Positions 2,186 through 26,490 of a stretch of 32,775 bases of DNA are shown here, in pieces; the first letter of the stretch is position 1; each line of letters starts with the position of its first letter. The notes under the pieces are model-generated. The model was not told the DNA's origin. It was given only the letters and a program-made list of their open reading frames with translations, and did no database searches. The stretch is from Ferruginibacter sp. Lineage in GTDB: Bacteria; Bacteroidota; Bacteroidia; Chitinophagales; Chitinophagaceae. The stretch spans positions 1-32,775 of the forward strand of contig JANXXM010000056.1 in assembly GCA_025350645.1 (NCBI GenBank). Direction: 5' to 3'. The translations under genes were made by a program, and so were the position numbers.

Positions 2186-3445
2186 CTAAAATTTTATTCC
2201 CTCTCTTATTTTATCGTACTCTGCAGCTTTTTTAGGATTATTCTTTACGTTATATATATCACTTAAATAATCAAGCGAATTTTTATAATTAATTTTTTGT
2301 GATGATTTTACCGGTGGCTTTTCCTGGTAATGTTTTACCATCACTTCTGCAAAAGGTATTACTTCATCCATTTTAGCATTTGCAAGTGCAGTAAGTGCTT
2401 TTTTCTTTTTTATATCTTCTGGTTTTATACTTTTTATTGCTGCTGCAGAAGTACTATAATCTGCCGCATAATTAAAGAGGTGGTTTGTAAGCAGCATGGT
2501 AGCGTCTTTTGAAGTATCTACAGCCATTGCACTTTTTAGAACTGCTGTTAGTTTTTCTTTAGCAGCAGGGTCAGTATTTTTTGCATCTTTACCATAAATG
2601 CTGTTGTACAATTCCACAGCATAATTATAATCGTTGGCAAAGTTAGAAGGGTTTTTTACATATAATTCTTCATACTTAGCAAACATGGCTCCTTTATCTC
2701 CGCCATTGGTAAGCTTATCCATTTCTATTTCGTTCCAGTAATTATTTTTAGGATAATTTGCCTTTCCTTTTGCTAATACAGTTTGCAGGTTAGCATCATC
2801 TTTTTTGCCATTATAATATCCTGAGAGGTATAAATACACATTCTCATAATCCGGGCCAGTCACATTTGCATCTGCCAGTTTTTTATATGCACCCACAGCA
2901 CCGGCTTCGTTTTTTGCATTAATAGCAGCAGCACCTGCATTCATAAGCAAAGCTGTGTCTATTACATTTAATTTTTGATCTGCATACTCATATTTTTTGC
3001 TTAAAATAAAATCTTTTACCTCCAGCGCTTTGTTAAAAGATTTATATGCACCTTCAAAATCTTTTTTGTTAAATTGATTTGCTCCCAGGTTATAAAACCC
3101 GGAATATACATAGAGGTAGGGCCGGTAAGAATCCATTTTTAAATACACATCCAGTTTATCTAATAATTGTGTTTTTTTATAGGCTTCTAATGCTTCCGTT
3201 TTTAAATCGAAAGCTATAGCAGCAGCCAATGTACTATCATTGGAATAATTATTATAAACGGTGGCTTTATAATACCAAACATTGGCCTTGTCTGCGTTTT
3301 TTGGGTCGGCAGTTATTTTATCAATACCAGCTTTGGCTTCTGCGTAATTACCTTTTTTCATTAATGCATCCAGCGCTTCTAAGTTTTGAGCAAATAAGCC
3401 TGCGCCTAATAACAGGCTCAAAGAAAGAACAATAATTTTTTTCAT
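2186..3445 (-). CDS. Exported TPR-repeat protein of unknown function
   Basis: The 419-residue protein begins with a clear signal peptide: MKK, a Leu-rich core, then AGLFAQ at residues 15-20, so it should be exported to the periplasm. There is no lipobox Cys. The mature part is helical and rich in Ala, Lys, Asn and Tyr, in the style of tetratricopeptide repeats (for example the segments around residues 20-65, 115-150 and 175-215). Such repeats usually serve protein-protein contacts. The family is common in Bacteroidota but I cannot name a partner. It is divergent from dnaG across 141 bp. The ATG start is favoured because the signal peptide begins exactly there. Confidence 0.85.
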   Translation of the reverse strand: MKKIIVLSLSLLLGAGLFAQNLEALDALMKKGNYAEAKAGIDKITADPKNADKANVWYYKATVYNNYSNDSTLAAAIAFDLKTEALEAYKKTQLLDKLDVYLKMDSYRPYLYVYSGFYNLGANQFNKKDFEGAYKSFNKALEVKDFILSKKYEYADQKLNVIDTALLMNAGAAAINAKNEAGAVGAYKKLADANVTGPDYENVYLYLSGYYNGKKDDANLQTVLAKGKANYPKNNYWNEIEMDKLTNGGDKGAMFAKYEELYVKNPSNFANDYNYAVELYNSIYGKDAKNTDPAAKEKLTAVLKSAMAVDTSKDATMLLTNHLFNYAADYSTSAAAIKSIKPEDIKKKKALTALANAKMDEVIPFAEVMVKHYQEKPPVKSSQKINYKNSLDYLSDIYNVKNNPKKAAEYDKIREGIKF

Positions 3446-3466
3446 AATTCAATTTTAATTAGGGGT

Positions 3467-3474
3467 TAAAGATA
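3467..3474 (-). promoter_or_regulatory. Candidate -7 element for the TPR gene
   Basis: On the minus strand TATCTTTA differs from TAnnTTTG at one base and lies 21 bp before the start codon. It sits inside a small dyad, AGGGGT (3461-3466) with ACCCTT (3474-3479). No clear -33 TTG was found. Confidence 0.3.
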
Positions 3475-3544
3475 CCCTTTCATACGTAAATAAGAAATTT
3501 TCACACACAATTTCATAAATTATGCCAGCAATGTTTTTAGCTGT

Positions 3545-3573
3545 TTGAAGGCTGTTAAAAATCCTTAATTTTA
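3545..3573 (+). promoter_or_regulatory. Candidate dnaG promoter
   Basis: TTG (3545-3547), an 18-bp spacer and TAATTTTA (3566-3573) approximate the Bacteroidota consensus TTG-N19-TAnnTTTG, with one mismatch in the -7 box. The GTG start lies 13 bp after the box, so the mRNA leader would be very short. Confidence 0.45.
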
Positions 3574-3586
3574 CCTTCCTCAAATT

Positions 3587-5530
3587 GTGATAAGTCAAAA
3601 TACCATACAACAGATTCAAAGCCGCATAGATATCATTGATATTGTAGGTTCCTTTGTAAAATTAAAAAAACGGGGAGCCAATTACATGGGGCTTTGTCCT
3701 TTTCATAACGAAAAATCTCCATCGTTTACAGTATCCCCTGCCAAAGAAATTTATAAATGTTTTGGTTGTGGCAAAAGCGGTAACAGCATTGGATTTTTAA
3801 TGGAGTTGGAAAAATATAGTTATGTAGAAGCACTTCGGTGGTTGGCAAATAAATATGGGGTAGAGATTGAAGAAACTGAAGTAAGCCCCGAAGTTCGTTT
3901 ACAACAGCAGGCAAGTGATAGCTTATACATCATCAACAACTTTGGCCAGCAGTTTTTTACAAATGCACTTTTACATACCAGCGAGGGTGAGGATATTGCC
4001 ATGAGTTACTTGGCTGAACGTGGTTTTAAAAAGGATATTATTGATAAATTTCAACTGGGATATTGCCCGGCAAACGGAGATCAGTTTGCAAACGCTGCCG
4101 TAACTGCACAATACAATAGTGAGCTTTTGGAAAAAAGCGGATTGGTGGTTTTAAGAGATGAAAAGTTGCGGGACAATTACCGGGGGCGTATCATTTTCCC
4201 TATTCATAATCAAAGTGGCAAAGTGCTTGGCTTTGGTGCAAGGCTTATAAAAAATAATGATAAGGCACCAAAATATATAAATACTCCCGAGAATGAAATT
4301 TATGTAAAAAGCAAAATTTTATACGGCTCTTATTTTGCCCGTATGGCCATAGACAAAGCAGATGAATGCCTGCTGGTAGAGGGTTACACAGATGTAGTGA
4401 GCCTGCACCAGGCAGGTGTGGAAAATGTAGTGGCAAGCGGCGGTACTTCTCTTACGCCAGACCAACTTCGGCTGGTAAAAAAATATACCAAAAACCTTAC
4501 AATAATTTATGATGGCGATGGCGCAGGTATAAAAGCGGCATTGCGGGGGATGGATCTTGCACTGGAAGAAGGGCTTAATGTGAGGCTTGTACTAATACCG
4601 GATAAGGAAGACCCGGACAGTTATGTAAACAAAGTAGGAGCTACTGCTTTTAAACAATTTGTAGAAGATAATAAACAGGATTTTGTACTGTTTCAATTAA
4701 GTCTTTCGCTAAAGGATGCAGGCAATGATTCTGCAAAAAAATCTACAGTGGTGAGCCAGATAGCAGAAACTATTTCAAAAATTACGAAGGCGGAACATTT
4801 TACACGGCGGCAGGACTATATTAAGCAGGTATCAGAATTATTAAAAATTGAAGAGGCTGGTTTTAATGACCTGGTAAATAAATTTATCCGAGAAAAAGTT
4901 CAAAAAGATGAAGGAAAAAATACAGTTTTTACAGCGCCAATTTCTGAACCGGATGCAACTATAGCAGCAGATGAAAATGGAGAAATAATTGCTCTTTTTA
5001 ATACAGATGAACTACAGGAACGAGCTATAGTGCGTAGTTTGATAGAATTTGGCATAAAAGAATGGGATGAAGAAAATAGTGTAGCTGCTTATATTTTTAA
5101 GGAGATAGACAACAATGACCTGGAAGCTATGATCGAAAATAAAAAACTGGTAGATATTGTACAGCTTTATCGCCGCTGGTATGATGAAGGAAACAGCCCT
5201 ACGGAAAAAGATTTTTTATATTACGAAAATGAAGAGATAAATAATTTAGTGTTACAATTAATGGAAACTAATACAGAAATAAGCATAAATTGGAACAAAC
5301 ACTACGAAGGAAAAATTGCCACAAGAGAAGATTATTTTAAAGAAGAAGTTATTTCTACACTCTCCTATTTTAAACTGCGTAAACTAAAAAAAATGATTGA
5401 TGAAAATCAGCGTCAGTTAGAAAAAGCCAGCACAGATGAAGATCAGTTTTTATTTTTAAAAACACACCTTGCATTAAAAATTGAAGAGCAACATATTACA
5501 AGGGAACTGGGTACCGTAATTTTTAAATAA
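3587..5530 (+). CDS. dnaG: DNA primase
   Basis: DnaG makes the RNA primers for replication at the fork. The 647-residue protein has the N-terminal zinc ribbon with C37, H40, C58 and C61 (CPFH and CFGC motifs). The catalytic TOPRIM domain follows, with VEGYTDVV (E265) and IIYDGDGAG (D309, D311) as metal-binding acidic motifs. The C-terminal part, from about residue 430, is the variable helicase-interaction region, rich in Glu and Lys. The start is GTG, which gives MISQNTIQQIQSRIDIIDIV, the normal primase N-terminus. It stands alone on the plus strand between two minus-strand genes. No rpsU or rpoD neighbour is present, unlike in enterobacteria. Confidence 0.97.
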   Translation: MISQNTIQQIQSRIDIIDIVGSFVKLKKRGANYMGLCPFHNEKSPSFTVSPAKEIYKCFGCGKSGNSIGFLMELEKYSYVEALRWLANKYGVEIEETEVSPEVRLQQQASDSLYIINNFGQQFFTNALLHTSEGEDIAMSYLAERGFKKDIIDKFQLGYCPANGDQFANAAVTAQYNSELLEKSGLVVLRDEKLRDNYRGRIIFPIHNQSGKVLGFGARLIKNNDKAPKYINTPENEIYVKSKILYGSYFARMAIDKADECLLVEGYTDVVSLHQAGVENVVASGGTSLTPDQLRLVKKYTKNLTIIYDGDGAGIKAALRGMDLALEEGLNVRLVLIPDKEDPDSYVNKVGATAFKQFVEDNKQDFVLFQLSLSLKDAGNDSAKKSTVVSQIAETISKITKAEHFTRRQDYIKQVSELLKIEEAGFNDLVNKFIREKVQKDEGKNTVFTAPISEPDATIAADENGEIIALFNTDELQERAIVRSLIEFGIKEWDEENSVAAYIFKEIDNNDLEAMIENKKLVDIVQLYRRWYDEGNSPTEKDFLYYENEEINNLVLQLMETNTEISINWNKHYEGKIATREDYFKEEVISTLSYFKLRKLKKMIDENQRQLEKASTDEDQFLFLKTHLALKIEEQHITRELGTVIFK

Positions 5531-5576: not shown

Positions 5577-7172
5577 TTAGCGAGCCACCTTGTGAATCTC
5601 ACTTGTAAAATGAAAAGTAATATCCGGATTGTTAGCAATTTCTGTGTTTAAAAACCATTCGCTTTGTGCAAGGTAAACCACATGTCCGTCTTTATCTTCT
5701 GCAATATTAGCCAGTTTATATTTTGTAAATTCTTCCAGCTTTTTAGGATCTTTTGCAGTGAGCCAGCATGCTTTAAAAAATGGCAGACTGTTCATTTGTA
5801 CAGATGCGCCATACTCCTGTAGCAGCCGGTATTGTATTACTTCAAACTGCAGTTCTCCTACGCAACCTATTATCTTTTTATTGCCGCCAAACTGGGTAAA
5901 AAGCTGTGCTACTCCTTCATCTGTAAGCTGGTTCAATCCTTTTTCCAGTTGCTTTGTTTTCATAGGATCTTTATTGAGCACTTCTTTAAATATCTCCGGC
6001 GAAAAACTCGGTATGCCGGTAAAATAAAACTTTTCACCTTCGGTAAGGGTATCGCCTATTTTAAAATTTCCTGTATCAAATAAACCCACCACATCGCCGG
6101 GGTATGCTTCTTCGATTACATCTTTTTGGCGGGCAAGAAAACTATAGGGATTATTGAAACGCATATCCTTATCCAGCCGCACATGTTCGTAATACGTATT
6201 GCGGCTAAACCTGCCACTGCATACCCGCAAAAATGCAATTCTGTCCCTGTGTTTAGGGTCGAGGTTGGCATGTATTTTAAAAATAAATCCGCTAAACTTT
6301 TCTTCTTCCGGGTTCACATCTCTTGTGGTAGTGTGGCGTGGGCGTGGCGTAGGAGCTATGCGTATAAAAGTATCCAGCATTTCCTTCACTCCAAAATTAT
6401 TTACTGCACTGCCAAAAAAAACAGGTGCGGTATTGCCGCTTAAATAATCAGCCTCGTTCAGTTCTCCATATACACCATCAATCAGTTCCACATCTTCCCG
6501 TAAAGTATTGGCGTCTCTATCCCCTATTTTTTCATTTAAAATTTTATCAGTCAGGTCGGTTATTTTTACCATGTTTTCATCATTTGCTTTTGTACCTGCG
6601 GTAAATAATACCAGGCTTTTTTGATGAAGATCGTACACCCCTTTAAATTCTTTACCACTGTTTATTGGCACCGTCATAGGGTGCAGTTGTATCTTCAGCT
6701 CATTCTCTATTTCTTCCAGCAAATCAAACCTATTCTTACCATCCCGGTCCATTTTATTAATAAAAACAATTACGGGTGTTTTGCGCATGGCTATAACTTC
6801 CATCAGGCGGCGTGTTTGAGGTTCCACACCATTTACACTGTCAATAACCAATACCACACTATCCACTGCGGTAAGGGTACGAAAAGTATCTTCAGCAAAA
6901 TCTTTGTGGCCCGGTGTATCCAGTAAATTTATAAGATGCCCATCGTACTCAAATGTCATTACGGAGGTGGCTACAGAAATTCCACGCTGCCTTTCTATTT
7001 CCATAAAATCCGAGGTAGCATGTTTTTTTATTTTATTGCTTTTTACCGCACCTGCAGTTTGTATAGCACCACCAAAAAGAAGAAATTTTTCGGTGAGCGT
7101 TGTTTTTCCCGCATCCGGGTGAGATATGATGGCAAAGGTTTTTCGTCTGTTAATTTCTGATGTATATTTCAT
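5577..7172 (-). CDS. prfC: Peptide chain release factor 3 (RF3 GTPase)
   Basis: RF3 is a translational GTPase that removes RF1/RF2 from the ribosome after peptide release. The 531-residue length equals the family norm (E. coli about 529). The G domain shows P-loop SHPDAGKT (17-24), switch I with [10 protein letters not shown] (61-70), DTPGH (85-89) and NKMD (139-142). Domains II and III follow, with the [19 protein letters not shown] segment near residue 430 typical of RF3 rather than EF-G, which would be about 700 residues. The ATG start follows a perfect promoter, leaving almost no leader. It converges with dnaG across 46 bp without a visible terminator. Confidence 0.97.
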
Positions 7173-12859: not shown

Positions 12860-13804
12860 TTATTTTTGTGCCAGCTTGGGTGCTTCTAATAATTGCTTGT
12901 AAGAAATTACAGCTTTGGTAATTGCTTCTGCTAGTTCCTGCTGCCCTTTATCGCTGTTCAAATATTGTTCATCGCCGGGGTTGCTTATAAAACCAGTTTC
13001 TATTAATATGGCTGGCATAGTTGTGGCTTCTAATACCCATATCCCTTTTGCCCGTTGAAAAATACCCAGTGCTGGTCTGCCTTTGGATGCAATTTCGTCC
13101 ATTACATAGCCCGCCATTCTATCACTTTTTTCTTTATTTCTTTTGGAATAAACCTGCGCAAGCTGCCTTACTTCTGGCGAGCTGGAATTAAAGGTACTAT
13201 AAGCAGAATCTCCTGATGCCTCAAACTGGATATTCTCTCTTATTTTATCATTTTTAATACCAGCATTCCTGGTATTCAAAAGCCACACACTCGTACCATG
13301 GCGCTCTGTGGGTATTTTATAATATTGGTAGGAAGGTATTTCCACATCATAAGGTTCCGTGTGTTTTACTTTTCTTCTGCCCTTACCGGTATAGTAAACT
13401 TTATATCGGGTAACTGTTTTTGAGCCTACCTGCCTGCGACCGGTTTTTAAATCCACTGCATCTGCATGTATACAAATAAAAAGATCTGCACCGGCATCAT
13501 TGGCAATATTTGCTTTTTCCCTGGGATCCTGGTATATATCTGTAGTTCTTGTAGGTATTGTTTTTACATCGGGCAATTGTCTTTTTAGTTCCACCACCAG
13601 TTTTTTTGATATGGCAAGGGTAATATCTTTTTCATTAGACCGCAATGAGTTTTCATACTCCCCAAAAGCACCGCCATCTTTGCCGCCATGCCCGGCATCT
13701 ACCACAATTGTTTTTAATTTTTTTGCTGCCTGTGCAGCACATTGTAAAAATAAAGCGCCTGAAAAAAGGCAGGCTGCAAATATTAATAATCCCTTTTTTA
13801 CCAT
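12860..13804 (-). CDS. N-acetylmuramoyl-L-alanine amidase (Amidase_3)
   Basis: The enzyme cleaves the amide bond between N-acetylmuramic acid and the peptide stem of peptidoglycan, in the periplasm. A signal peptide covers about residues 1-26 and includes Cys22 in LQCAAQ, so a lipoprotein is possible. The zinc-site residues are H39 (VVDAGHGGKDGG), E58 (SNEKDITL) and H113 (ICIHADA). The catalytic glutamate is E269 (PAILIETGF). Between about 120 and 205 there is a large insert compared with minimal Amidase_3 domains, including the basic stretch GKGRRKVKH. It is divergent from lptD across a 90-bp shared promoter region and heads the amidase, MCE, OstA gene string. Confidence 0.93.
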   Translation of the reverse strand: MVKKGLLIFAACLFSGALFLQCAAQAAKKLKTIVVDAGHGGKDGGAFGEYENSLRSNEKDITLAISKKLVVELKRQLPDVKTIPTRTTDIYQDPREKANIANDAGADLFICIHADAVDLKTGRRQVGSKTVTRYKVYYTGKGRRKVKHTEPYDVEIPSYQYYKIPTERHGTSVWLLNTRNAGIKNDKIRENIQFEASGDSAYSTFNSSSPEVRQLAQVYSKRNKEKSDRMAGYVMDEIASKGRPALGIFQRAKGIWVLEATTMPAILIETGFISNPGDEQYLNSDKGQQELAEAITKAVISYKQLLEAPKLAQK

Positions 13805-13873
13805 TTTTATAAAAAAATTTAACAGGTTTTGTTATAATTAAAATAAAGCTTAACCGTATTTTAGTTTAATAGC

Positions 13874-13881
13874 TACTTTTG
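13874..13881 (+). promoter_or_regulatory. -7 element of lptD
   Basis: TACTTTTG matches TAnnTTTG exactly and is 13 bp before the ATG of lptD, again leaving a very short leader. A TTA (13850-13852) is the only -33-like candidate. Confidence 0.45.
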
Positions 13882-13894
13882 CCCATTAGCAATT

Positions 13895-16639
13895 ATGAAC
13901 AACACTAACAAAGGTAAGGCAAAAAATATTTTAGCTTGGTCATTGCCGTTGCTCCTCCTATTATTAACTTACCATTTTGATGGCTTTGCATCATTTATAC
14001 ACTACAATATAAAACAAAGTTTTACAGATACGCCGCCGCCTGTAAAAAACTTAACAGATACCAATATCATTAAAATAAAAAAAAGATCGGATACATTAAG
14101 AAAACCATTTATTGGCGAAGAAAAAAAAATAATTATTGATTCTTCTTTTACTAATGTATCGGATACTTTTTCTTTTAAACGATCTAAAGATACGCTGGAT
14201 GCGCCTGTGGTTTATCATGCAGATGATTCTATGGTATTTGATGTGCCCACAAAAAAAATGATTTTGTATGGCAAAATATCTTCTATAAAATACAGTGATA
14301 ATAATTTATCTGCTCCGCAAATTGAGTATGATCAGAGAACAAGTCTTGTAAAAGCATTTCTAAAAAAAGACAGTGCAGGCAAGGTTTTATCTTATCCCTA
14401 TTTTAGCCAGGCAGATTTTCAATCTGTAAGTGATACGATTGAAGTGAACATGAAAACAGGCAAAGGGCTTACGAAAGGCACGTATACCAAACAAGGCGAA
14501 ATGTTTGTGTACGGCGAAAAAATAAAGAAGATAGATACTTCCGCATTTTATGCGCTCAAAGCGAGATTTACTACCTGCAATTTAGATACACCGCATTTTG
14601 CTTTTGTGGCAAAAAAAATAAAGTTCGTAAATAAAAAATGGGCTTACTCTGGCCCTGTGCATCCGGAGTTTGAAGGTGTACCATTGCCCATACAATTACC
14701 ATTTGGTATTTTTCCGCTTACGCAGGGGCGTCACTCCGGCCTGCTGGCACCTTCATTTACAGCAAATGAACAACTAGGGCTTACCTTAGATAATTTGGGT
14801 TATTATAAAATTATCAGCGGCAATTGGGATGTTATTACGAGAGGTTCCATTTATTCTTATGGAAGCTGGAAGGCAAATGTAAACCCAAGATATTACCGCA
14901 GGTATCATTACCAGGGAAATATTAGTTTGGATGTACAAAAAATAAAACCACTTGATGAAAAAGGCTCTCCCACATTTCTTATAGGCTGGAGTCACAATGC
15001 AGATACAAAATCCCGGCCCGGTACCAGCTTTACGGCCAATGTAAATGCCGGCAGCAGTAAGTACAATTCACAGGTGCCCAATAGCCCGGTAAGAAATTTT
15101 CAAAACCAGTTAAGCTCTTCTATAACCTATTCTAAAAATTGGAAAAACAGGCCTTACAATATTTCCATAAGTGCCAATCATAACCAGAATACAGTAAACA
15201 AACAAATTAATATAAACTTGCCTGACGTGGCTTTTAATGTAAATACTCAATATCCTTTTAGAAAAAAAGATGCGGCAGGAGATTTAAAATGGTATGAAAA
15301 TATTGGTATAGGATATAATGGAAACGGACGAAGCCTCACTTCTTTTTACGATACTGCCGGCAATATAGGAAAACAAGCACTAAATAATTTACAATATGGT
15401 GCCCGCCATTCTATTCCAATTACACTTTCATTGCCACCGCTAGGTGTGCTGCAAGTAGCACCTTCTGTTTCGTACGAAGAAAAATGGTACCAACAAAAAT
15501 TTGTACATACTTACAATCCACTAAAAAAAGCAGAGGATACTGTAAAGACAAATGGTTTTTACACTGCCAGGCAAATGACTTTTGGGATAAGTTTTAGTAC
15601 ACGTATTTTTGGCATGTATGGCTTTGGAAAAAACAGCAATATAAAAGCTGTTCGTCACGAAATAAGGCCCAGTATATCTGCAAATTATTCTCCAAATTTT
15701 AATGCAAAGAATTTTTACAAAGCAAGGATAGATTCTGCAGGCAATACAGGGCTAAGGTCTTATTATGAAAACAGTATTTATGGTGCGTATAATAACCAGC
15801 GTTTTGGCGGATTAAGTTTTAGCCTGGATAATGTGGTGAGCATGAAAGTGCGGGATAAAGCTGATACCAGCGCAAAGGCAGATAAAAAAATAAGTATAAT
15901 TGACGGGCTTAAGCTGGATGGATCTTATAATTTTCTACAGGATTCTTTTAAATTTTCCAATCTTACTTTATCTGCAAGAAGCACCATTACAGACAAAATA
16001 AATATATCTGCAGGTGCAGTATTTAATCCTTATCAAACAGATAAAAATGGTAGAAATATTGATAAACTAGTGTGGTCAAAAAATCCTTTTACGTTAGGGC
16101 AACTGGTAAGCGGATCCGTGCAAATGCAAAGTTCTTTTAAAGGCGGAGATAAAAAAAATAAAAAGAACGACAATAATAAACTAAACAATGGTGCACTTAA
16201 TAACCTGGATAACAGGAATGGGTTGCCTTTGGATGAATACCAAAAGGAAGCAGCTTACATTCAAAACAATCCGGGAGAATTTGTAGATTTTGAAATTCCT
16301 TACCAGGCAGATTTTTCTTACTCTCTCGTTTTTAGCCGCCCTTTTGATGTAGCATCTGCCAAGTTTAAAACAGTATTTACCCAAGCTTTAAATTTTAATA
16401 CTTCTGCAAATCTAAGTCCCAAATGGAAAATAGGTATAAATGGCAATTATGATATTACCCTTAAAAAGATACAAACTGTAAGTATGTTTTTATCCAGAGA
16501 TATGCATTGCTGGCAAATGGCAATCAATATTTCACCGGTAGGTATTTATCGATTTTTTAGTATCAACATAAGTCCAAAATCGGCTATACTGCGAGATCTG
16601 AAAATAAACAGAACAAGATCATTTTATGATACTCCTTAA
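13895..16639 (+). CDS. lptD: LPS-assembly outer-membrane protein LptD-like
   Basis: LptD is the outer-membrane beta-barrel that inserts lipopolysaccharide into the outer leaflet. In this 914-residue protein an N-terminal hydrophobic segment (about 12-30) serves as signal. An OstA-like periplasmic domain covers about 100-250 (for example ADDSMVFDVPTKKMILYGKI). The barrel follows, starting with the LptD-typical segment PLPIQLPFGIFPLTQGRHSG (about 264-283), then alternating aromatic and polar strands to the C-terminus. A charged Lys/Asn-rich loop lies near residues 748-775. It diverges from the amidase and converges with plsC, sharing 4 bp of overlapping stop codons. The family is known as LptD-like in Bacteroidota; LptE is not seen here. 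Confidence 0.9.
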   Translation: MNNTNKGKAKNILAWSLPLLLLLLTYHFDGFASFIHYNIKQSFTDTPPPVKNLTDTNIIKIKKRSDTLRKPFIGEEKKIIIDSSFTNVSDTFSFKRSKDTLDAPVVYHADDSMVFDVPTKKMILYGKISSIKYSDNNLSAPQIEYDQRTSLVKAFLKKDSAGKVLSYPYFSQADFQSVSDTIEVNMKTGKGLTKGTYTKQGEMFVYGEKIKKIDTSAFYALKARFTTCNLDTPHFAFVAKKIKFVNKKWAYSGPVHPEFEGVPLPIQLPFGIFPLTQGRHSGLLAPSFTANEQLGLTLDNLGYYKIISGNWDVITRGSIYSYGSWKANVNPRYYRRYHYQGNISLDVQKIKPLDEKGSPTFLIGWSHNADTKSRPGTSFTANVNAGSSKYNSQVPNSPVRNFQNQLSSSITYSKNWKNRPYNISISANHNQNTVNKQININLPDVAFNVNTQYPFRKKDAAGDLKWYENIGIGYNGNGRSLTSFYDTAGNIGKQALNNLQYGARHSIPITLSLPPLGVLQVAPSVSYEEKWYQQKFVHTYNPLKKAEDTVKTNGFYTARQMTFGISFSTRIFGMYGFGKNSNIKAVRHEIRPSISANYSPNFNAKNFYKARIDSAGNTGLRSYYENSIYGAYNNQRFGGLSFSLDNVVSMKVRDKADTSAKADKKISIIDGLKLDGSYNFLQDSFKFSNLTLSARSTITDKINISAGAVFNPYQTDKNGRNIDKLVWSKNPFTLGQLVSGSVQMQSSFKGGDKKNKKNDNNKLNNGALNNLDNRNGLPLDEYQKEAAYIQNNPGEFVDFEIPYQADFSYSLVFSRPFDVASAKFKTVFTQALNFNTSANLSPKWKIGINGNYDITLKKIQTVSMFLSRDMHCWQMAINISPVGIYRFFSINISPKSAILRDLKINRTRSFYDTP

Positions 16640-20163: not shown

Positions 20164-21006
20164 ATGAAAGAACAGGAATATATCAATTATAACCGCATAG
20201 CTGAAGCCATTAGTTTTATACAAAACAACTTTAAAGAGCAACCGGATTTAGATGTTGTGGCGCAAAAAGTACATTTAAGCCCTTTTCATTTTCAAAGACT
20301 TTTTACCGAATGGGCAGGTACAAGCCCTAAGAAATTTTTGCAATATACAAGTATTGAATATGCTAAAAAACGATTGAAAGAAAACCAGGCCTCGTTGTTT
20401 AATACAGCCTTCGATACCGGACTTTCTGGCGCAGGGCGCCTGCACGACTTATTCATAAATATTGAAGGAATGTCCCCCGCAGAATATAAAAATGCTGGTA
20501 AAAACCTTGCAATCAATTACAGTTTTGCAGCAAGTACTTTTGGCAATATTTTGGTTGCCTCTACACCAAAAGGAATTTGTTATATGGCTTTTTTTGAGGC
20601 GAAAGAAAAAGCATTATCATTATTACATCATCTTTTTCCTAATGCCGTTTTCAGCCAAAAATCAGATAGGTATCAACAGCAGGGGTTGTTTATTTTTCAA
20701 AATGACTGGAGTAATTTAAATCAAATAAAACTACATTTAAAAGGAACTAATTTTCAAATAAAAGTTTGGGAAACCTTATTAAAAATTCCAATGGGCCAGC
20801 TACAGACCTACGGTAACATTGCGGAGCAAATTAAAAGCCCGAAAGCAGCAAGAGCAGTAGGAACAGCAATAGGAAACAATCCCGTTGCATTTTTAATTCC
20901 CTGCCATAGGGTTATTCAATCTACAGGGGCATTGGGAGGTTATATGTGGGGTACTACTCGCAAAACTGCCATTATTGGTTGGGAAGCCGCTAAAGTGAAT
21001 GTATGA
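20164..21006 (+). CDS. AraC-type regulator fused to O6-methylguanine-DNA methyltransferase (Ada-like)
   Basis: The 280-residue protein joins a DNA-binding domain to a suicide DNA-repair domain. Residues about 1-105 are an AraC-type helix-turn-helix (HLSPFHFQRLFTEWAGTSPK and the second helix region AFDTGLSGAGRLHDLF). Residues about 115-278 form an MGMT domain with IPMGQLQTYGNIAEQI and the acceptor-cysteine motif IPCHRVI (C247). A G-G-Y-x-W-G substrate loop follows. The zinc-binding phosphotriester-repair domain of E. coli Ada, with its Cys38 switch, is absent, so the signal for induction is not obvious. It removes alkyl groups from O6-alkylguanine and may regulate its own expression. No alkA or alkB neighbour is present. 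It lies downstream of the insertion sequence. Confidence 0.93.
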   Translation: MKEQEYINYNRIAEAISFIQNNFKEQPDLDVVAQKVHLSPFHFQRLFTEWAGTSPKKFLQYTSIEYAKKRLKENQASLFNTAFDTGLSGAGRLHDLFINIEGMSPAEYKNAGKNLAINYSFAASTFGNILVASTPKGICYMAFFEAKEKALSLLHHLFPNAVFSQKSDRYQQQGLFIFQNDWSNLNQIKLHLKGTNFQIKVWETLLKIPMGQLQTYGNIAEQIKSPKAARAVGTAIGNNPVAFLIPCHRVIQSTGALGGYMWGTTRKTAIIGWEAAKVNV

Positions 21007-21218: not shown

Positions 21219-21530
21219 ATGAGTGAAGACATCAAAAAACTGGAGCTCAGAATTACTGAGCTGGAAAACCAGCTTAAATCTGCAGGTGCACAAAAAGCAA
21301 CTGTAGATCCCGAAGAAATGAAAGTTTTTCAAAAAGTGAGCCAGCAGCTCGGCATTGGCGGCTGTATCAATGAATGCCAGCCGGCAAAACCCTTTCTATG
21401 CCAGGTTTGCCACAGCTGTTATCATTGCTATCACTGCTTTCATTGCCTTTGCAATGAGTGTATTTGCGGGCCTTGCATACTAAACCATGGAGGCACATTT
21501 GGGGGCACACGATTTGGCGGACTAGGCTAA
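21219..21530 (+). CDS. Cys-rich RiPP precursor peptide, azole-type (TOMM/LAP)
   Basis: The 103-residue peptide has two distinct parts. Residues 1-46 are charged and helical, with Ile/Leu spaced as in a coiled coil (I5, L8, I12, L15, L19), and look like a leader. LGIGG (44-48) could be a double-glycine cleavage site. The core, from C49, holds 12 Cys: 49, 53, 61, 64, 67, 70, 73, 76, 78, 81, 83 and 86. Residues 61-76 are a strict C-x-x-C ladder, CQVCHSCYHCYHCFHC, with His or Tyr between. The tail GGTFGGTRFGGLG is Gly-rich. A cyclodehydratase and SagB dehydrogenase directly follow, so Cys-to-thiazole conversion is the expected fate. A metal-binding role of the Cys/His ladder is the alternative. 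The upstream gap (21007-21218) shows only a weak promoter-like AAACTTTG (21178-21185). Confidence 0.8.
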   Translation: MSEDIKKLELRITELENQLKSAGAQKATVDPEEMKVFQKVSQQLGIGGCINECQPAKPFLCQVCHSCYHCYHCFHCLCNECICGPCILNHGGTFGGTRFGGLG

Positions 21531-21545
21531 ATTTTGCGGTATAAC

Positions 21546-21596
21546 AGTAGCTGTTAGGAAATACCTATACCCTTTTTTTTTGACAGCTACTTTTTT
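21546..21596 (+). terminator. Terminator-like hairpin between precursor and maturation genes
   Basis: AGTAGCTGT (21546-21554) pairs with ACAGCTACT (21583-21591), followed by a run of T (21591-21596). The loop contains a small inner TAGG/CCTA pair and a long T tract. It lies 16 bp after the precursor stop and 53 bp before the cyclodehydratase start, so partial termination would raise precursor over enzyme expression. Confidence 0.6.
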
Positions 21597-21648
21597 AAAT
21601 ACCTGCGTATACTTGAAAATATTTTTACACTTAGTGAAATAAAATTTC

Positions 21649-24093
21649 ATGAAATCATTTTATATTCTGGCCCCAGATATTGCAGTAATAGATATGAAGG
21701 ATGGAAATTTCCTTTTCAAATCAGATACACTTTCCATAAAACTGGAGGGAGCTTCTACAGAGTTTCTCGTAAAAAATATTTTGCCCTTGCTCAATGGAGA
21801 AAATGATGTAGAAACCATTGCTGCAAAAGTAAAGAACATTGCTGCCGATGATCTTACCAGCAACCTTAACCAACTGGTAAAAGCGGGTGTATTGTTGTGT
21901 ATGCCGCTACCCTATTCCGAAAAAAATACCGGAGGAGCAGCAACTTTTTTTTCAAACTTTTTAGAAACAACGGGTATGGATGCGCAGGCTGCATTGCAAA
22001 ATATATCGCAATACAAAATAGGTATTGCCGGGCTGGATGCTCATGGTATACAAACCATACTGGCATTGGGCCAGGCAGGCTTTAAAAAATTTAAACTGGC
22101 AGATCCTTTTAAAACAGATGAAAATATTTTAAGCATATTCCCTTTTCTAAAAAAAGAAAAAGCAACCCGGCAGGATGCTGTACAGGATTATTTTTTGCAA
22201 AAAATGCCAGGAGTAAATATCGAAACAGGGCCACCCGAACTTACAAAAGAAAATATTGAAGATTTTATGAGCGATTGCCATTTGATAATTGTTTGTTTTG
22301 ATAAAGGTTTTTCTACTATTAATTATTGGATAAATGAACTCTGTATTTCTAAAAATATTCCTGCATTGTATGCTGCCATAAAAGGCCATATCTGTTTTAC
22401 AGGCCCGTTGGTTGTGCCAGGTAAAACGGCATGCTACATGTGCTATAAAATGCGCAATGTAGCCACCAAAGAAGATTTTGAAGAAGCCATGCTGTATGAA
22501 GAATACCTTAATACACAAAAAACACCCAGCCTGGGTAGCCGAAGCCTTTTACCAGCAGCCATTAATATTGTAGCAGCCATAATATCTGCCGAAGTATTAA
22601 AGTTTTTTTTCTCCTTTTCTCATCTTTCTCTTATTAATAAAATTAATGTTTTTGATACGCTTAGTTTTAAAAATGAATTGCATTCTTTTTTGCAAAAGCC
22701 GGATTGCCCTGTTTGTGTAAAAAAAAAGCATGAGCGTATCCACTACCCTGCTCATGAATTGATAAAACTACATCAGCCATCAGACCTGGGTGCACTTTTA
22801 AAAACACTCGTAAGCAAGCATACAGGTATTATAAAAAATTTAGAAAATATACCCAAGGATATTACAGAACCTACACTTCCATTGGTATATATGGCCGAAC
22901 TTTCCAACCATAATTTTTTAAAGAATGACAAGCATAATAAATTAAATTGTTCCGGCAAAGGGATGAACGAAACCAGGGCTAAAATAAGTGCCGCTGGGGA
23001 AGCTGTTGAAAGATATTCATCTACTATTTATACCAGCAATGATATTTTATTTTCCAGCTACGATGCTATTAAAGAAGAAGCATTGCATCCCAAACACCTT
23101 GTGCTTTATCTTCCAGATCAATATAAAGATATTATTTTTTCACCCTTCGATCCGCAGCAGGAAATAGGCTGGGTAAAAGCGTTTTCTCTCGTGCATAACA
23201 AACCAGTTTATGTACCTGCACACAGTACCATTTTAAATTATAATTTAAAAAACGATAAAGAGTATTTATGCCAAGCTACTTCAAACGGGCTAGCTGCGGG
23301 TGCCAGCATGATGGATGCAGTTTTATCTGCCGCAGGCGAAGTAATAGAAAGAGATGCTTTTGTTATTACATGGCACAACGAACTGCCTTGTAAAAGATAC
23401 GATCCATTTTTGCACCCCTCAATTGAGGTAAAGAATTTGTGCATGGCTTATAAAAGACGAGGAGTAAATATGCGATTATTTGAATTACCTACCGACACAC
23501 CCATGAGAGTATTTTTAGGTATAGGCGTGCAGGCAGAAGGCAGCGGGCCGCAAATAGTAGTAGGGTTGGGTGCAGATTTTAATGCCGCAAAAGCAGCACG
23601 GCAGGCACTCCTGGAAGTTGGCCAGGTGAGGCCAGCTTTTAAACAACGAATACGAATACCCGAAACACAGGCAAGGCTGGCACACTTATTAAAAGACCCG
23701 ATGAATGTAGAGGAACTGGAAGATCATGATTTGCTATACTCTGTAAAAGATAAAATAGCAGCTTTTGATTTTCTCTTTAAACTCCCTTTTTCTGTAATGG
23801 ACTGGGGAAACGATACAGAAAAAACTGCAACAGAACAATTTGAAATACTAACGGATTTTTTTAAAAAAGAAGAGCGAAATTTTATTTATTATAACCTTAC
23901 CTCTCCAGATATGGAACAGTTAGGTTTATTTACTGCAAGGGTAATTATTGCAGATTTTCAACCCATTCATTTTGGCACAAAAAACATACGGCTTGGTGGT
24001 AATAGATTGTACGAGTTTGCACAAAACATTGGCCTCAAAAATAAAAGAACTACCCCGGAAGAAATAAATAAAAATCCTCACCCGCTTGCTTAA
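21649..24093 (+). CDS. Fused TOMM cyclodehydratase (RRE + E1-like + YcaO)
   Basis: The enzyme should bind the precursor leader and, using ATP, cyclise Cys (or Ser/Thr) side chains to azolines. Residues about 1-90 have the winged-helix RRE fold seen in PqqD-like leader-binding domains (FLVKNILPLLNGENDVETIA). Residues about 115-360 form an E1/ThiF-like domain. Its nucleotide loop is degenerate (GIAGLDAHGI), as in ocin-ThiF proteins, and a zinc site is formed by C262, C265, C353 and C356 (CYMC and CPVC). From about 400 on is the YcaO domain, with SGKGMNETRAKISAAGEAVER (435-455, E451 and E454) and the ATP-site segment ATSNGLAAG...SAAGEVIERDAF (543-571). The C-terminus, NPHPLA, keeps part of the Pro-rich end typical of azoline-forming YcaO proteins. 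It is followed after 9 bp by the dehydrogenase gene. Confidence 0.93.
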   Translation: MKSFYILAPDIAVIDMKDGNFLFKSDTLSIKLEGASTEFLVKNILPLLNGENDVETIAAKVKNIAADDLTSNLNQLVKAGVLLCMPLPYSEKNTGGAATFFSNFLETTGMDAQAALQNISQYKIGIAGLDAHGIQTILALGQAGFKKFKLADPFKTDENILSIFPFLKKEKATRQDAVQDYFLQKMPGVNIETGPPELTKENIEDFMSDCHLIIVCFDKGFSTINYWINELCISKNIPALYAAIKGHICFTGPLVVPGKTACYMCYKMRNVATKEDFEEAMLYEEYLNTQKTPSLGSRSLLPAAINIVAAIISAEVLKFFFSFSHLSLINKINVFDTLSFKNELHSFLQKPDCPVCVKKKHERIHYPAHELIKLHQPSDLGALLKTLVSKHTGIIKNLENIPKDITEPTLPLVYMAELSNHNFLKNDKHNKLNCSGKGMNETRAKISAAGEAVERYSSTIYTSNDILFSSYDAIKEEALHPKHLVLYLPDQYKDIIFSPFDPQQEIGWVKAFSLVHNKPVYVPAHSTILNYNLKNDKEYLCQATSNGLAAGASMMDAVLSAAGEVIERDAFVITWHNELPCKRYDPFLHPSIEVKNLCMAYKRRGVNMRLFELPTDTPMRVFLGIGVQAEGSGPQIVVGLGADFNAAKAARQALLEVGQVRPAFKQRIRIPETQARLAHLLKDPMNVEELEDHDLLYSVKDKIAAFDFLFKLPFSVMDWGNDTEKTATEQFEILTDFFKKEERNFIYYNLTSPDMEQLGLFTARVIIADFQPIHFGTKNIRLGGNRLYEFAQNIGLKNKRTTPEEINKNPHPLA

Positions 24094-24102
24094 TACCTGT
24101 AT

Positions 24103-24885
24103 ATGTTTAGAGATAAATATCCTGCCGCATGGACGTTCCATCAAAATTCCTGCAGATCAGAATTAAATACGCTCATGCCACAATACGGGCAGGCACATGC
24201 AGAAAATTATAAGGAATATTTTTTGGCTCCGTCATTTCCTTTACCAGAAGTAAATGTGCCCAAAATGGATTTTACAGATCTGCTTTTTGCAAGGTTTTCC
24301 TGCAGACGGTTTAAAAATACAGCACTTACCCTGCAGCATTTGGCTAATGTATTATTTAGCGGCTATGGGCTAAGGAATGTAATTATGATTGACAATAACG
24401 AATTTAAAGAAAGAACAGTACCCTCGGGTGGTGGTTTATATCCGCTGGAGTTTTATGCTATTGTATCAAATGTAGCAGGATTACAAAAAGGTATTTACCA
24501 CTATGTAATGCAGCCAAATTTACTGGAGCAGGTAAAACAGATAGACTTACCCCGGTCTTTTTTACAAAACTTATTTATGGATCAGTCGTATGTAGCAGCC
24601 GCAGCAGCTATAGTAGTTTGCACAGCCGTAATTGAACGCAGCATGAAAAAATATGCAGATAGGGGCTATAGGTATATATTATTTGAGGCCGGACATGCTT
24701 TTCAAAATATGAATTTAATGAGTACAGCTTGCGGCTTGGGTTCAATGAATATCGGTGGCTTTTTTGATAAGGATATGTGTAGCGTTTTAGGTATAGATAT
24801 AAATGAAGAAATACCCCTGTATGCAATGGCAATGGGTGTAGCAGATGGTACTTCTGTTACTGCAAGAATGCCCGAGAATATGTAA
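24103..24885 (+). CDS. SagB-type FMN-dependent azoline dehydrogenase
   Basis: SagB-type enzymes oxidise thiazoline/oxazoline rings to aromatic thiazole/oxazole using FMN. The 260-residue protein has a nitroreductase fold. FMN-binding motifs are ARFSCRRFKN (about 62-71) and PSGGGLYPLEFYAIV (about 108-122); the family usually shows PSaGarhPlE here. KYADRGYRYILFEAGHAFQN (about 185-204) is the dimer/FMN helix, and CGLGSMNIGGFFD lies near 210. The residues before the SagB domain (1-50) are short, with no RRE. It begins 9 bp after the cyclodehydratase, clearly in the same operon. The expected lysine-tyrosine catalytic pair of SagB enzymes was not pinned down by eye. Confidence 0.9.
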   Translation: MFRDKYPAAWTFHQNSCRSELNTLMPQYGQAHAENYKEYFLAPSFPLPEVNVPKMDFTDLLFARFSCRRFKNTALTLQHLANVLFSGYGLRNVIMIDNNEFKERTVPSGGGLYPLEFYAIVSNVAGLQKGIYHYVMQPNLLEQVKQIDLPRSFLQNLFMDQSYVAAAAAIVVCTAVIERSMKKYADRGYRYILFEAGHAFQNMNLMSTACGLGSMNIGGFFDKDMCSVLGIDINEEIPLYAMAMGVADGTSVTARMPENM

Positions 24886-25137: not shown

Positions 25138-26490
25138 ATGCAACACAAAACTGCAATATTCCTGTTATTATTTTTCATCGTAAAAATTGCTTTTCCCCAA
25201 TCAGCAGCAACGCTACAGCAAAAAATATTACCTAATGAAAATAATGCTATACTTAACCCATGGCCTCCGCAGCCAACCCGACTTTGTCCACAACCCTATA
25301 AAATTGTTATCGTAGGATCTTCTACCGCTTATGGTACCGGGGCTACACCATTAGATAGTGCCTGGGCAAGAAAATTCAGACTTTATCTTTTGGAAGAGAA
25401 TTCAGCAGTTCAAGTAATAAATATTGCCACGCCTGGCCTCACTTCCTGGGATGTATCTCCCACCGGTACTGTAGTTCCGGCACCTTTTACCATAGATCCT
25501 GATCGCAACATAACCAAAGCACTTTCTCTTAACCCAGATGCTATAATACTTAACCTCCCATCAAATGATGTAGCCAGGGGAATATCGACTGCAAATATTC
25601 ATAATAATTTTATGAATATTGTAGGCGCAGCTACTGCACAAAATGTACCGGTATGGGTTACAACTACGCAGCCACGAAATGGGCTAAGCCCTGCCGAAGG
25701 TGTTTTACAGGCAGAACTAAGGGATTGGATAAACCTTACTTATGGTAACAAATCAGTAGACTTTTGGACGAACATAGCTAACCCGGATAATACTATTAAT
25801 CCTTTTTACAGCTTTGGTGATGGTGTACACCTTAATAATGAAGGTCACCACGTTTTATTTACAAGAATAATAGAAGAAAAAATATGGGATACTATATGCC
25901 GCAGAAAGGATATACCTCCTGTAGCCAGAGCAGGTAATGATACTACCATATTGATAGCATCTTTACCCATTACTTTAAATGGGTCATTATCTACAGATGC
26001 TGATGGCAGCATTACAGGATATAGCTGGCTTAAAATATCCGGCCCTGCTGGCGCCGGGGTACTTGCCAATGCAAATACTGCGGTGGCAACAGCTTCAACT
26101 TTTTCTGGAGGAATGTTTAAATATCAGCTAACGGTTACGGATAATATTGGCATTTCTTCAAAAGATACAATGATTGTAACTGTAAATAGTGTATTGGCAT
26201 TGGATGATCCCGATAGCCCTGCAAATATTAACGGGGAAACTAAGTCTCTTAAAGTTTTCCCTAATCCTGCTGCTGATGTTATTAATATAAAAATCCCTAA
26301 AGTATTTTTAAACAATTACAATATTACACTTAGCAATAGCATGGGTAATATTATTTTTAAAAAAACGGTAGAAAAAAATAGCGGAAATAATTTTGAAATA
26401 ATAGATATAAAAAACTTGGAAAGCGGTATGTATATTTTGCAGTTTCTGAGTAAGGAGAAAAAAGTTGTACGCAAGATAATTAAGCTTTAA
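25138..26490 (+). CDS. Secreted SGNH/GDSL hydrolase with PKD-like and T9SS sorting domains
   Basis: The 450-residue protein is probably an esterase or acetylhydrolase exported by the type IX secretion system. A signal peptide covers 1-21 (ending AFPQ). The SGNH domain (about 50-255) shows the nucleophile block IVGSSTAYGTG (S61), the block III-like NLPSNDVARG and the catalytic DGVHLNNEGH (Asp/His). A PKD-like beta-sandwich follows at about 262-347 (LSTDADGSITGYSWLKISGP). The C-terminal 85 residues are a T9SS type A sorting domain with VFPNPAADVINI and the ending SGMYILQFLSKEKKVVRKII, normally removed at the cell surface. Substrate is unknown. It shares the last two domains with the protein at 31350-32729. 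Confidence 0.9.
   Translation: MQHKTAIFLLLFFIVKIAFPQSAATLQQKILPNENNAILNPWPPQPTRLCPQPYKIVIVGSSTAYGTGATPLDSAWARKFRLYLLEENSAVQVINIATPGLTSWDVSPTGTVVPAPFTIDPDRNITKALSLNPDAIILNLPSNDVARGISTANIHNNFMNIVGAATAQNVPVWVTTTQPRNGLSPAEGVLQAELRDWINLTYGNKSVDFWTNIANPDNTINPFYSFGDGVHLNNEGHHVLFTRIIEEKIWDTICRRKDIPPVARAGNDTTILIASLPITLNGSLSTDADGSITGYSWLKISGPAGAGVLANANTAVATASTFSGGMFKYQLTVTDNIGISSKDTMIVTVNSVLALDDPDSPANINGETKSLKVFPNPAADVINIKIPKVFLNNYNITLSNSMGNIIFKKTVEKNSGNNFEIIDIKNLESGMYILQFLSKEKKVVRKIIKL

What the first reader, a model, noticed from the sequence alone, without database searches (positions are those of the whole stretch)
21219..24885. Compact azole-RiPP locus with an unusual 12-cysteine precursor
Seen: a 103-aa peptide, a fused RRE/E1-like/YcaO protein and a SagB-type dehydrogenase in a row on one strand, the last two 9 bp apart. 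Known: this enzyme set makes thiazole/oxazole peptides (linear azole-containing peptides). Inference: the product would be a poly-thiazole peptide from a Bacteroidota bacterium, where few such products are characterised. The precursor does not match any TOMM precursor class I can recall.
Basis: partly seen in the sequence, partly recalled or inferred. Interest (0 to 1): 0.9.

Follow-up and report, generated by a model that had tools for sequence, protein, structure and literature searches.

The report
New family of thiazole-peptide precursor genes
This three-gene unit in a Bacteroidota bacterium very probably makes a small peptide whose repeated cysteines are turned into thiazole rings; the enzymes are of a known kind, but the peptide belongs to a family that the libraries and papers checked do not name, with a relative in a proteobacterium and enzyme relatives in Chloroflexota.

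Summary
Window 21219-24885 carries a 103-aa, 12-Cys peptide, an 814-aa fused RRE/E1-like/YcaO cyclodehydratase and, 9 bp on, a SagB-type dehydrogenase. The model of the fusion matches the heterocyclase LynD over residues 4-813; zinc-type Cys, YcaO Glu/Gln/Arg and a C-terminal PHP are the same in all 40 sequences aligned. The azole (TOMM/LAP) reading is well supported, though no chemistry was seen. The peptide is not a one-off: a profile search gave 68 proteins, window included, with a probably helical leader, Cys repeats (7-19 Cys), an ECxCGPC block in 63 of 68 and an RFGxLG-like tail. Same-order units lie in Ginsengibacter and a Mucilaginibacter MAG, with a hairpin after the precursor gene. 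A homologous Paracoccus precursor sits with a radical-SAM C-methyltransferase and a split cyclodehydratase. In 394 family genomes, precursor and full-length fusion occur in the same two. Closest known precursor: heterocycloanthracin, also (Cys-Xaa-Xaa)n, whose model the window's peptide does not match. Export, leader removal and activity are unknown.

The parts
21219..21530 (+). Precursor peptide gene, 103 aa: probably helical leader (res 1 to about 46), Cys core (res 49-86, 12 Cys, 7 of 11 gaps are C-x-x-C), ending in ECICGPC, then a Gly-rich RFGGLG tail
   Evidence: ORF; family of 68; same place in L001, L002
21546..21596 (+). Hairpin (16 pairs) plus U-tract between precursor and enzymes: probable partial terminator
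   Evidence: -24.1 kcal/mol, z -4.06, 0 of 200 shuffles as stable; hairpins of other sequence at the same place in L001 (z -2.54, 2 of 200) and L002 (z -1.89, 8 of 200); not listed by the simple scan, whose loop limit is 8
21649..24093 (+). Fused cyclodehydratase, 814 aa: RRE-like domain (about 1-90), E1/ThiF-like domain (about 95-360), YcaO domain (about 375-814), ends PHPLA
24103..24885 (+). SagB/McbC-type dehydrogenase, 260 aa, with Lys183-Tyr184 aligned to a Lys-Tyr of McbC
   Evidence: TIGR03605, PF00881, McbC 6gos_C

Best explanation
The unit is a minimal azole-RiPP (TOMM/LAP) pathway. The precursor is transcribed first and probably in excess, as a hairpin with a U-tract after its gene would stop part of the transcripts (inferred). 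Its leader docks on the RRE-like domain of the fused protein (inferred from the fold). The E1-like domain helps present the core to the YcaO domain, which uses ATP to close core cysteines onto the preceding carbonyl and give thiazolines (inferred from family and residues). The SagB-type enzyme oxidises these to thiazoles with FMN (inferred). The product would be a string of up to 12 thiazoles, mostly two residues apart. The ECxCGPC block and RFGxLG-like tail after the variable repeat may be a C-terminal recognition or processing element (weakest step, about 0.3). The likeliest use is against other bacteria (about 0.5); export and leader removal would be done by proteins not identified here. 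The confidence given is for azole formation on this precursor.
Against: No chemistry or activity was observed. I saw no exporter, protease or immunity gene shared by the flanks of window, L001 and L002 (by eye; L002 has only about 0.4 kb upstream and 0.9 kb downstream of the unit). Among the three close copies the core is not freer to change than the leader (pN/pS 0.16-0.21 against 0.13-0.24), which does not suggest a fast-diversifying antibiotic. MusD, whose PDB title speaks of peptidase activity, is almost as near in fold and sequence as LynD and TruD.
Confidence: 0.85

Rival explanations
1. The azole peptide is made, but it is not a secreted antibiotic: it is a retained or surface molecule, for example metal-binding or redox-active, in which the CGPC block stays as free thiols. 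(Not exclusive of azole formation.)
For: ECxCGPC in 63 of 68 members; no exporter, protease or immunity gene seen to be shared by three loci (by eye); core under purifying selection like the leader among three copies.
Against: Cys number and spacer residues differ widely across the 68; the block is not universal: L002 has ECTPC and Paracoccus CINECGGGC; heterocycloanthracin too has a constant C-terminal motif.
Confidence: 0.25
2. The YcaO fusion makes something other than azoles on this peptide (thioamide, amidine) or cleaves it, as MusD is reported to do.
Against: LynD is first by both Foldseek and VIA Z and the match includes the RRE-like part, while the MusD match starts at residue 101; TIGR03604 is above cut-off; a SagB-type gene lies 9 bp away and recurs in L001 (67% identical), in Paracoccus (TIGR03605 118.4 bits) and, by eye, in L002; the substrate is Cys-rich.
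Confidence: 0.07
3. The Cys repeat is an unmodified structural or metal-binding protein and its place in front of the azole enzymes is incidental.
For: CxxC is a typical metal-ligand motif (recalled); 14 of 20 precursor clusters on longer contigs not paired with a fusion.
Against: Same 2 of 394 genomes; same relative order in four loci of two phyla; six contig-length pairings besides the window's own; no confident fold for the peptide (pLDDT 59.6, pTM 0.28).
Confidence: 0.04

Closest known systems
Heterocycloanthracin/sonorensin (TIGR03601) of Bacillus
   Same: Leader, then a length-variable (Cys-Xaa-Xaa)n core, then a constant C-terminal motif; YcaO cyclodehydratase plus SagB-type dehydrogenase (PMC2674419, part 1 of 2 and passages; PMC4603692 section 15).
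   Different: The window's precursor does not match TIGR03601 at E <= 0.1; 4 of the 68 rows of A3 (67 of the homologues plus the Paracoccus precursor) match at E <= 0.01, best 4.9e-6; the only one of the four I looked at, P0099, has 23.3 bits against a cut-off of 35. Heterocycloanthracin uses a truncated CD fusion plus a separate F protein, and mostly distant precursor genes; here the RRE-like domain is in the fusion and the precursor is adjacent.
Cyanobactin heterocyclases LynD/TruD (fused RRE-E1-YcaO)
   Different: About 21% identity in the aligned part; the precursor is a multi-Cys ladder; no cyanobactin protease seen beside the unit (by eye).
Microcin B17 synthetase McbBCD
   Different: E1-like and YcaO parts fused here; precursor of another kind.
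Compact LAP clusters of candidate-phyla-radiation bacteria (PMC7298704, passages)
   Same: Small YcaO plus nitroreductase clusters with a neighbouring precursor in bacteria not known for RiPPs.
   Different: Those have a peptidase gene, and the passage names Ser and Cys as targets; sequences were not compared.
Paracoccus denitrificans HAMBI_2443 plasmid locus L013 (no annotation in the record stretch)
   Same: Homologous precursor (hhalign 98.8%), E1-like protein, YcaO (TIGR03604 355.6 bits) and SagB.
   Different: Adds a TIGR03975 B12/radical-SAM C-methyltransferase (779.9 bits) and has C and D as separate genes.

Membership tests
TOMM / linear azol(in)e-containing peptide pathway | YcaO-type D protein of the cyclodehydratase subfamily | tested here: met
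TOMM / linear azol(in)e-containing peptide pathway | E1-like C protein or CD fusion with leader-binding domain | tested here: met
   TIGR03882 57.1 bits vs 36.9, PF00899; model aligns from residue 3 or 4 with LynD, MccB, PaaA. Leader binding itself not tested
TOMM / linear azol(in)e-containing peptide pathway | Small Cys/Ser/Thr-rich precursor with a leader | tested here: met
   103 aa, 12 Cys, family of 68
TOMM / linear azol(in)e-containing peptide pathway | SagB-type dehydrogenase (optional feature) | tested here: met
   TIGR03605 135.5 bits vs 78.4
TOMM / linear azol(in)e-containing peptide pathway | Azoline or azole rings in the product | not testable with these tools
   needs mass spectrometry
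Heterocycloanthracin | Precursor reaches the TIGR03601 cut-off | tested here: not met
   no match of the window precursor at E <= 0.1; of 68 rows of A3, 4 match at E <= 0.01, one seen at 23.3 bits vs 35
Heterocycloanthracin | Repeated Cys-Xaa-Xaa core | tested here: met
   Cys gaps in the window 4,8,3,3,3,3,3,2,3,2,3
Heterocycloanthracin | CD fusion truncated at its N-terminus, with a separate F protein | tested here: not met
   fusion not truncated: RRE-like part present in the model; TIGR03693 only 21 bits vs 561.9. The rest of the genome was not searched for an F protein
Thioamide-forming YcaO with TfuA | TfuA gene beside the YcaO gene | tested here: inconclusive
   none noticed among the window ORFs listed, but by eye; only six window proteins were scanned

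The most novel reading that the evidence does not exclude
A horizontally spread, cross-phylum RiPP family (Bacteroidota, Alphaproteobacteria and, judged by the enzymes, Chloroflexota) in which one homologous precursor scaffold - helical leader, expandable Cys ladder of period 3 or 4, ECxCGPC-like block and RFGxLG-like tail - is decorated by different enzyme sets (azoles alone, or azoles plus radical-SAM C-methylation). The C-terminal block would be a follower that sets the register of ring formation, and the ladder's period would be matched to the enzyme clade.
Probability: 0.35. Interest if true: 0.7.

Novelty: new variant of a known kind. Interest (0 to 1): 0.5.

Why it matters
If right, it is a compact three-gene system for long polythiazole peptides (up to 19 Cys among the 68 relatives) from Bacteroidota. 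The words 'Bacteroidetes' and 'Chloroflexi' do not occur in the held text of the main published TOMM survey (PMC4603692; its figures and supplements were not seen). The natural series of period-3 and period-4 ladders makes it directly testable how a YcaO cyclodehydratase reads a repeat and whether a C-terminal block matters. The Paracoccus relative points to a hybrid azole and C-methyl product.

Tried and rejected
Fusion relatives in viral contigs: none with the single protein; with alignment A2 one locus, a YcaO of another kind (L025). Precursors in plasmids: P0104 no match; the Paracoccus precursor only itself; the Paracoccus C protein only itself at the limit used. The Nonomuraea hit L014 (32% over residues 184-814) was scanned for a Cys-rich precursor: none by the script's criteria in its 14 kb; dropped. 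In one search, of 59 genomes, three besides the window's match: G045 (same order; 27% over residues 195-813 with 3 stops inside, plus a second short match) and weak ThiF-part matches in G025 and G039; not counted as relatives of the unit. In one search G108, and G611 and G693, match only in part (model positions 393-818, 366-819, 212-673); not counted as full-length fusions. In one search, 8 of 395 genomes match the precursor profile; 7 of them at 21-23 bits over model positions 29-79 only, inside frames of 161-703 aa; not counted. Defence models: no match for the three proteins. GC of fusion and SagB gene (0.37, 0.38) is like the neighbouring genes, so transfer rests only on the patchy distribution. 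The precursor's model is of low confidence: two helices in the leader, nothing reliable in the core. Rows dropped: A2 holds 40 of the 64 close fusions (I left out short pieces and some near duplicates); A3 holds 67 of the 68 precursors (P0089 left out) plus the Paracoccus one; A4 holds 48 of the 68. Of 68 precursors, 17 have neither a run of three gaps of 3 nor of 4 (from: 41 + 11 - 1 = 51 have one). The 'tail' count of 64 of 68 uses a loose pattern (F, one of GSNDQA, any, one of LFM in the last 14 residues).

Literature searches: heterocycloanthracin+YcaO+Bacteroidetes 0 papers; Cys-Xaa-Xaa+bacteriocin+anthracis 10; Chloroflexi+YcaO+precursor peptide+linear azol 2; at least 4 of YcaO/Bacteroidetes/thiazole/precursor peptide/SagB 8; linear azole-containing peptide+cyclodehydratase+cysteine-rich+genome mining 0; radical SAM+YcaO+Paracoccus denitrificans+RiPP 1; Chitinophagaceae+YcaO+RiPP 1; sonorensin 66, 20 listed; Herpetosiphon+YcaO 0; at least 3 of Ginsengibacter/thiazole/RiPP/bacteriocin/YcaO/azole-containing 117, 15 listed, none of these with Ginsengibacter. 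Read: PMC4603692 (outline with abstract, section 4 part 1, sections 15 and 27, passages), PMC2674419 (part 1 of 2, passages), PMC7298704, PMC9426513 and PMC7136475 (passages), PMC12455567 (abstract). I saw no description of this precursor family there or in the listings; many papers are not held, and supplements could not be opened.
Full report
What is there. On the + strand of the window, in order: a 103-aa peptide with 12 Cys (21219-21530), a 118-bp gap, an 814-aa protein (21649-24093), a 9-bp gap and a 260-aa protein (24103-24885). Upstream is an Ada-like AraC/methyltransferase gene (20164-21006), downstream a GDSL-lipase/PKD/T9SS-tail gene (25138-26490); neither looks like part of the unit.

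Precursor family. No Pfam or NCBIfam model matches the window's peptide at E <= 0.1. A profile of three copies found 68 proteins, window included, in a database of 5.8 billion. They share a leader of the KLELRITELENQLK kind (helical in a low-confidence model), a Cys-rich core, an ECxCGPC block (63 of 68) and an aromatic tail (64 of 68 by a loose pattern). They hold 7-19 Cys (median 12); 41 of 68 have a run of at least three gaps of 3, 11 have such a run of gaps of 4, one of these has both, and 17 have neither. The block is not absolute: L002 has ECTPC. No precursor came with a Chloroflexota name. This is a small sample, and Chloroflexota as host of the precursor family is inferred from it. Other names given by sources: fusions in Ginsengibacter and Puia, precursors in Flavisolibacter and Puia.

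Selection. Among the window, L001 and L002 precursors pN/pS is 0.13-0.24 in the leader, 0.16-0.21 in the core and 0.28-0.37 after the last Cys. The gene is under purifying selection; in these three copies the core is not freer to change than the leader and the tail is the least constrained part, which speaks neither for a fast-diversifying core nor for a strictly fixed tail.

Conservation of the unit. L001 (Ginsengibacter hankyongi) and L002 (a 4.9-kb contig of a MAG labelled Mucilaginibacter) have precursor, fusion and a SagB-like gene in the same order. In L002 the fusion's frame is interrupted as listed (pieces of 237, 468 and 82 aa), by decay or sequencing error; it was left as is. The SagB of L001 is 67% identical to the window's. 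By eye the flanking ORFs differ between window and L001; L001 has an ABC-2-permease-like ORF on the other strand about 4 kb downstream (13203-14321), for which I noticed no counterpart in the window. In 394 genomes of the window's family a precursor match at E <= 1e-5 occurs in 2 (the window's own and G103), and a full-length fusion in the same 2 (the two draws have the same size and the same listed handles, so presumably are the same genomes). The own genome has one YcaO match and one precursor match. G103 carries the same precursor as L001, so the window's family is Chitinophagaceae. A full-length fusion is in 0 of 35 other same-genus genomes, in G103 alone of 20 genomes of its genus, and in 0 of 394 other genomes drawn from the phylum. 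The unit is rare and scattered, which suggests transfer or frequent loss. By equal longest-contig length, 7 of 66 precursor clusters pair with a fusion cluster, one of them the window's own; of the 20 on contigs of at least 6 kb, 6 pair and 14 do not. The 14 are unexplained: the fusion search scored only the 7,995 best candidates and each cluster reports one contig length, so they are neither proof of orphans nor against it.

Expression. Between precursor and fusion each of the three loci has a long hairpin with a U-run at its end, of different sequence: window -24.1 kcal/mol, z -4.06, 0 of 200 shuffles as stable; L001 z -2.54, 2 of 200; L002 z -1.89, 8 of 200 (sequences). A partial terminator that gives more precursor than enzyme is the natural reading (inference).

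A relative with more enzymes. The only plasmid record in which one place covers at least 80% of the fusion is a 1.7-Mb Paracoccus denitrificans plasmid (28% identity, 94% covered). About 2 kb upstream of the E1-like gene lies a 130-aa peptide of the same plan (leader, 11 Cys, CINECGGGC, GGGFGGLGG end) that aligns to the family profile with 98.8% probability. The order there is precursor, TIGR03975 radical-SAM C-methyltransferase (779.9 bits), C protein, D protein (TIGR03604 355.6 bits), SagB (TIGR03605 118.4 bits). The record has no annotation in this stretch.

Known or new. Heterocycloanthracin (PMC2674419; part 1 and passages read) has the same plan - leader, Cys-Xaa-Xaa repeats of variable number, constant C-terminal motif - but the window's peptide does not match its model; 4 of the 68 rows of A3 match at E <= 0.01, best 4.9e-6, and the one inspected is below the cut-off (23.3 vs 35 bits), so a distant common origin is possible. 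Its enzymes differ: truncated fusion plus separate F protein (PMC4603692 section 15). That survey names some 20 groups; 'Bacteroidetes' and 'Chloroflexi' do not occur in its held text. I therefore call the unit a new variant of a known kind: enzymes ordinary, precursor family apparently undescribed in the sources searched.

Shown: the genes, their families, the predicted fold, conserved residues, the precursor family, its plan, and co-occurrence in the genomes searched. Inferred: leader binding, ring formation and oxidation, attenuation, transfer, Chloroflexota hosts of the precursor. Unknown: export, leader removal, immunity, activity, and the role of the CGPC block and tail.

None of these moved the odds, which rest on the enzymes and co-occurrence.

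Noticed in passing
L025:5431-7571: IMG/VR contig with a 401-aa YcaO-like ORF overlapping a TfuA-like ORF, near a portal-protein-like ORF (2945-5080): perhaps a phage-borne YcaO/TfuA pair (YcaO by tblastn match; the other names by eye).
   Followed up: no
L013:3641-9105: Unannotated Paracoccus denitrificans plasmid cluster: Cys-ladder precursor, B12/radical-SAM C-methyltransferase, split cyclodehydratase and SagB, a predicted azole plus C-methyl hybrid RiPP.
   Followed up: partly
window:18397-19716: IS1380-family transposase (NF033539, 260.2 bits) on the - strand, about 1.5 kb upstream of the precursor gene; may bear on the unit's patchy distribution.
   Followed up: no
L002:804-3254: The fusion gene of the Mucilaginibacter MAG contig is listed in three pieces (237, 468, 82 aa): broken or mis-assembled; left as is.
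   Followed up: no
L001:5716-8454: The fusion gene's frame is open back to 5716, overlapping the precursor gene in another frame (912-aa ORF); the match to the window's protein starts at 6001.
   Followed up: partly
L001:13203-14321: ABC-2-permease-like ORF on the - strand, about 4 kb downstream of the Ginsengibacter unit (by eye); a possible but unlinked exporter.
   Followed up: no
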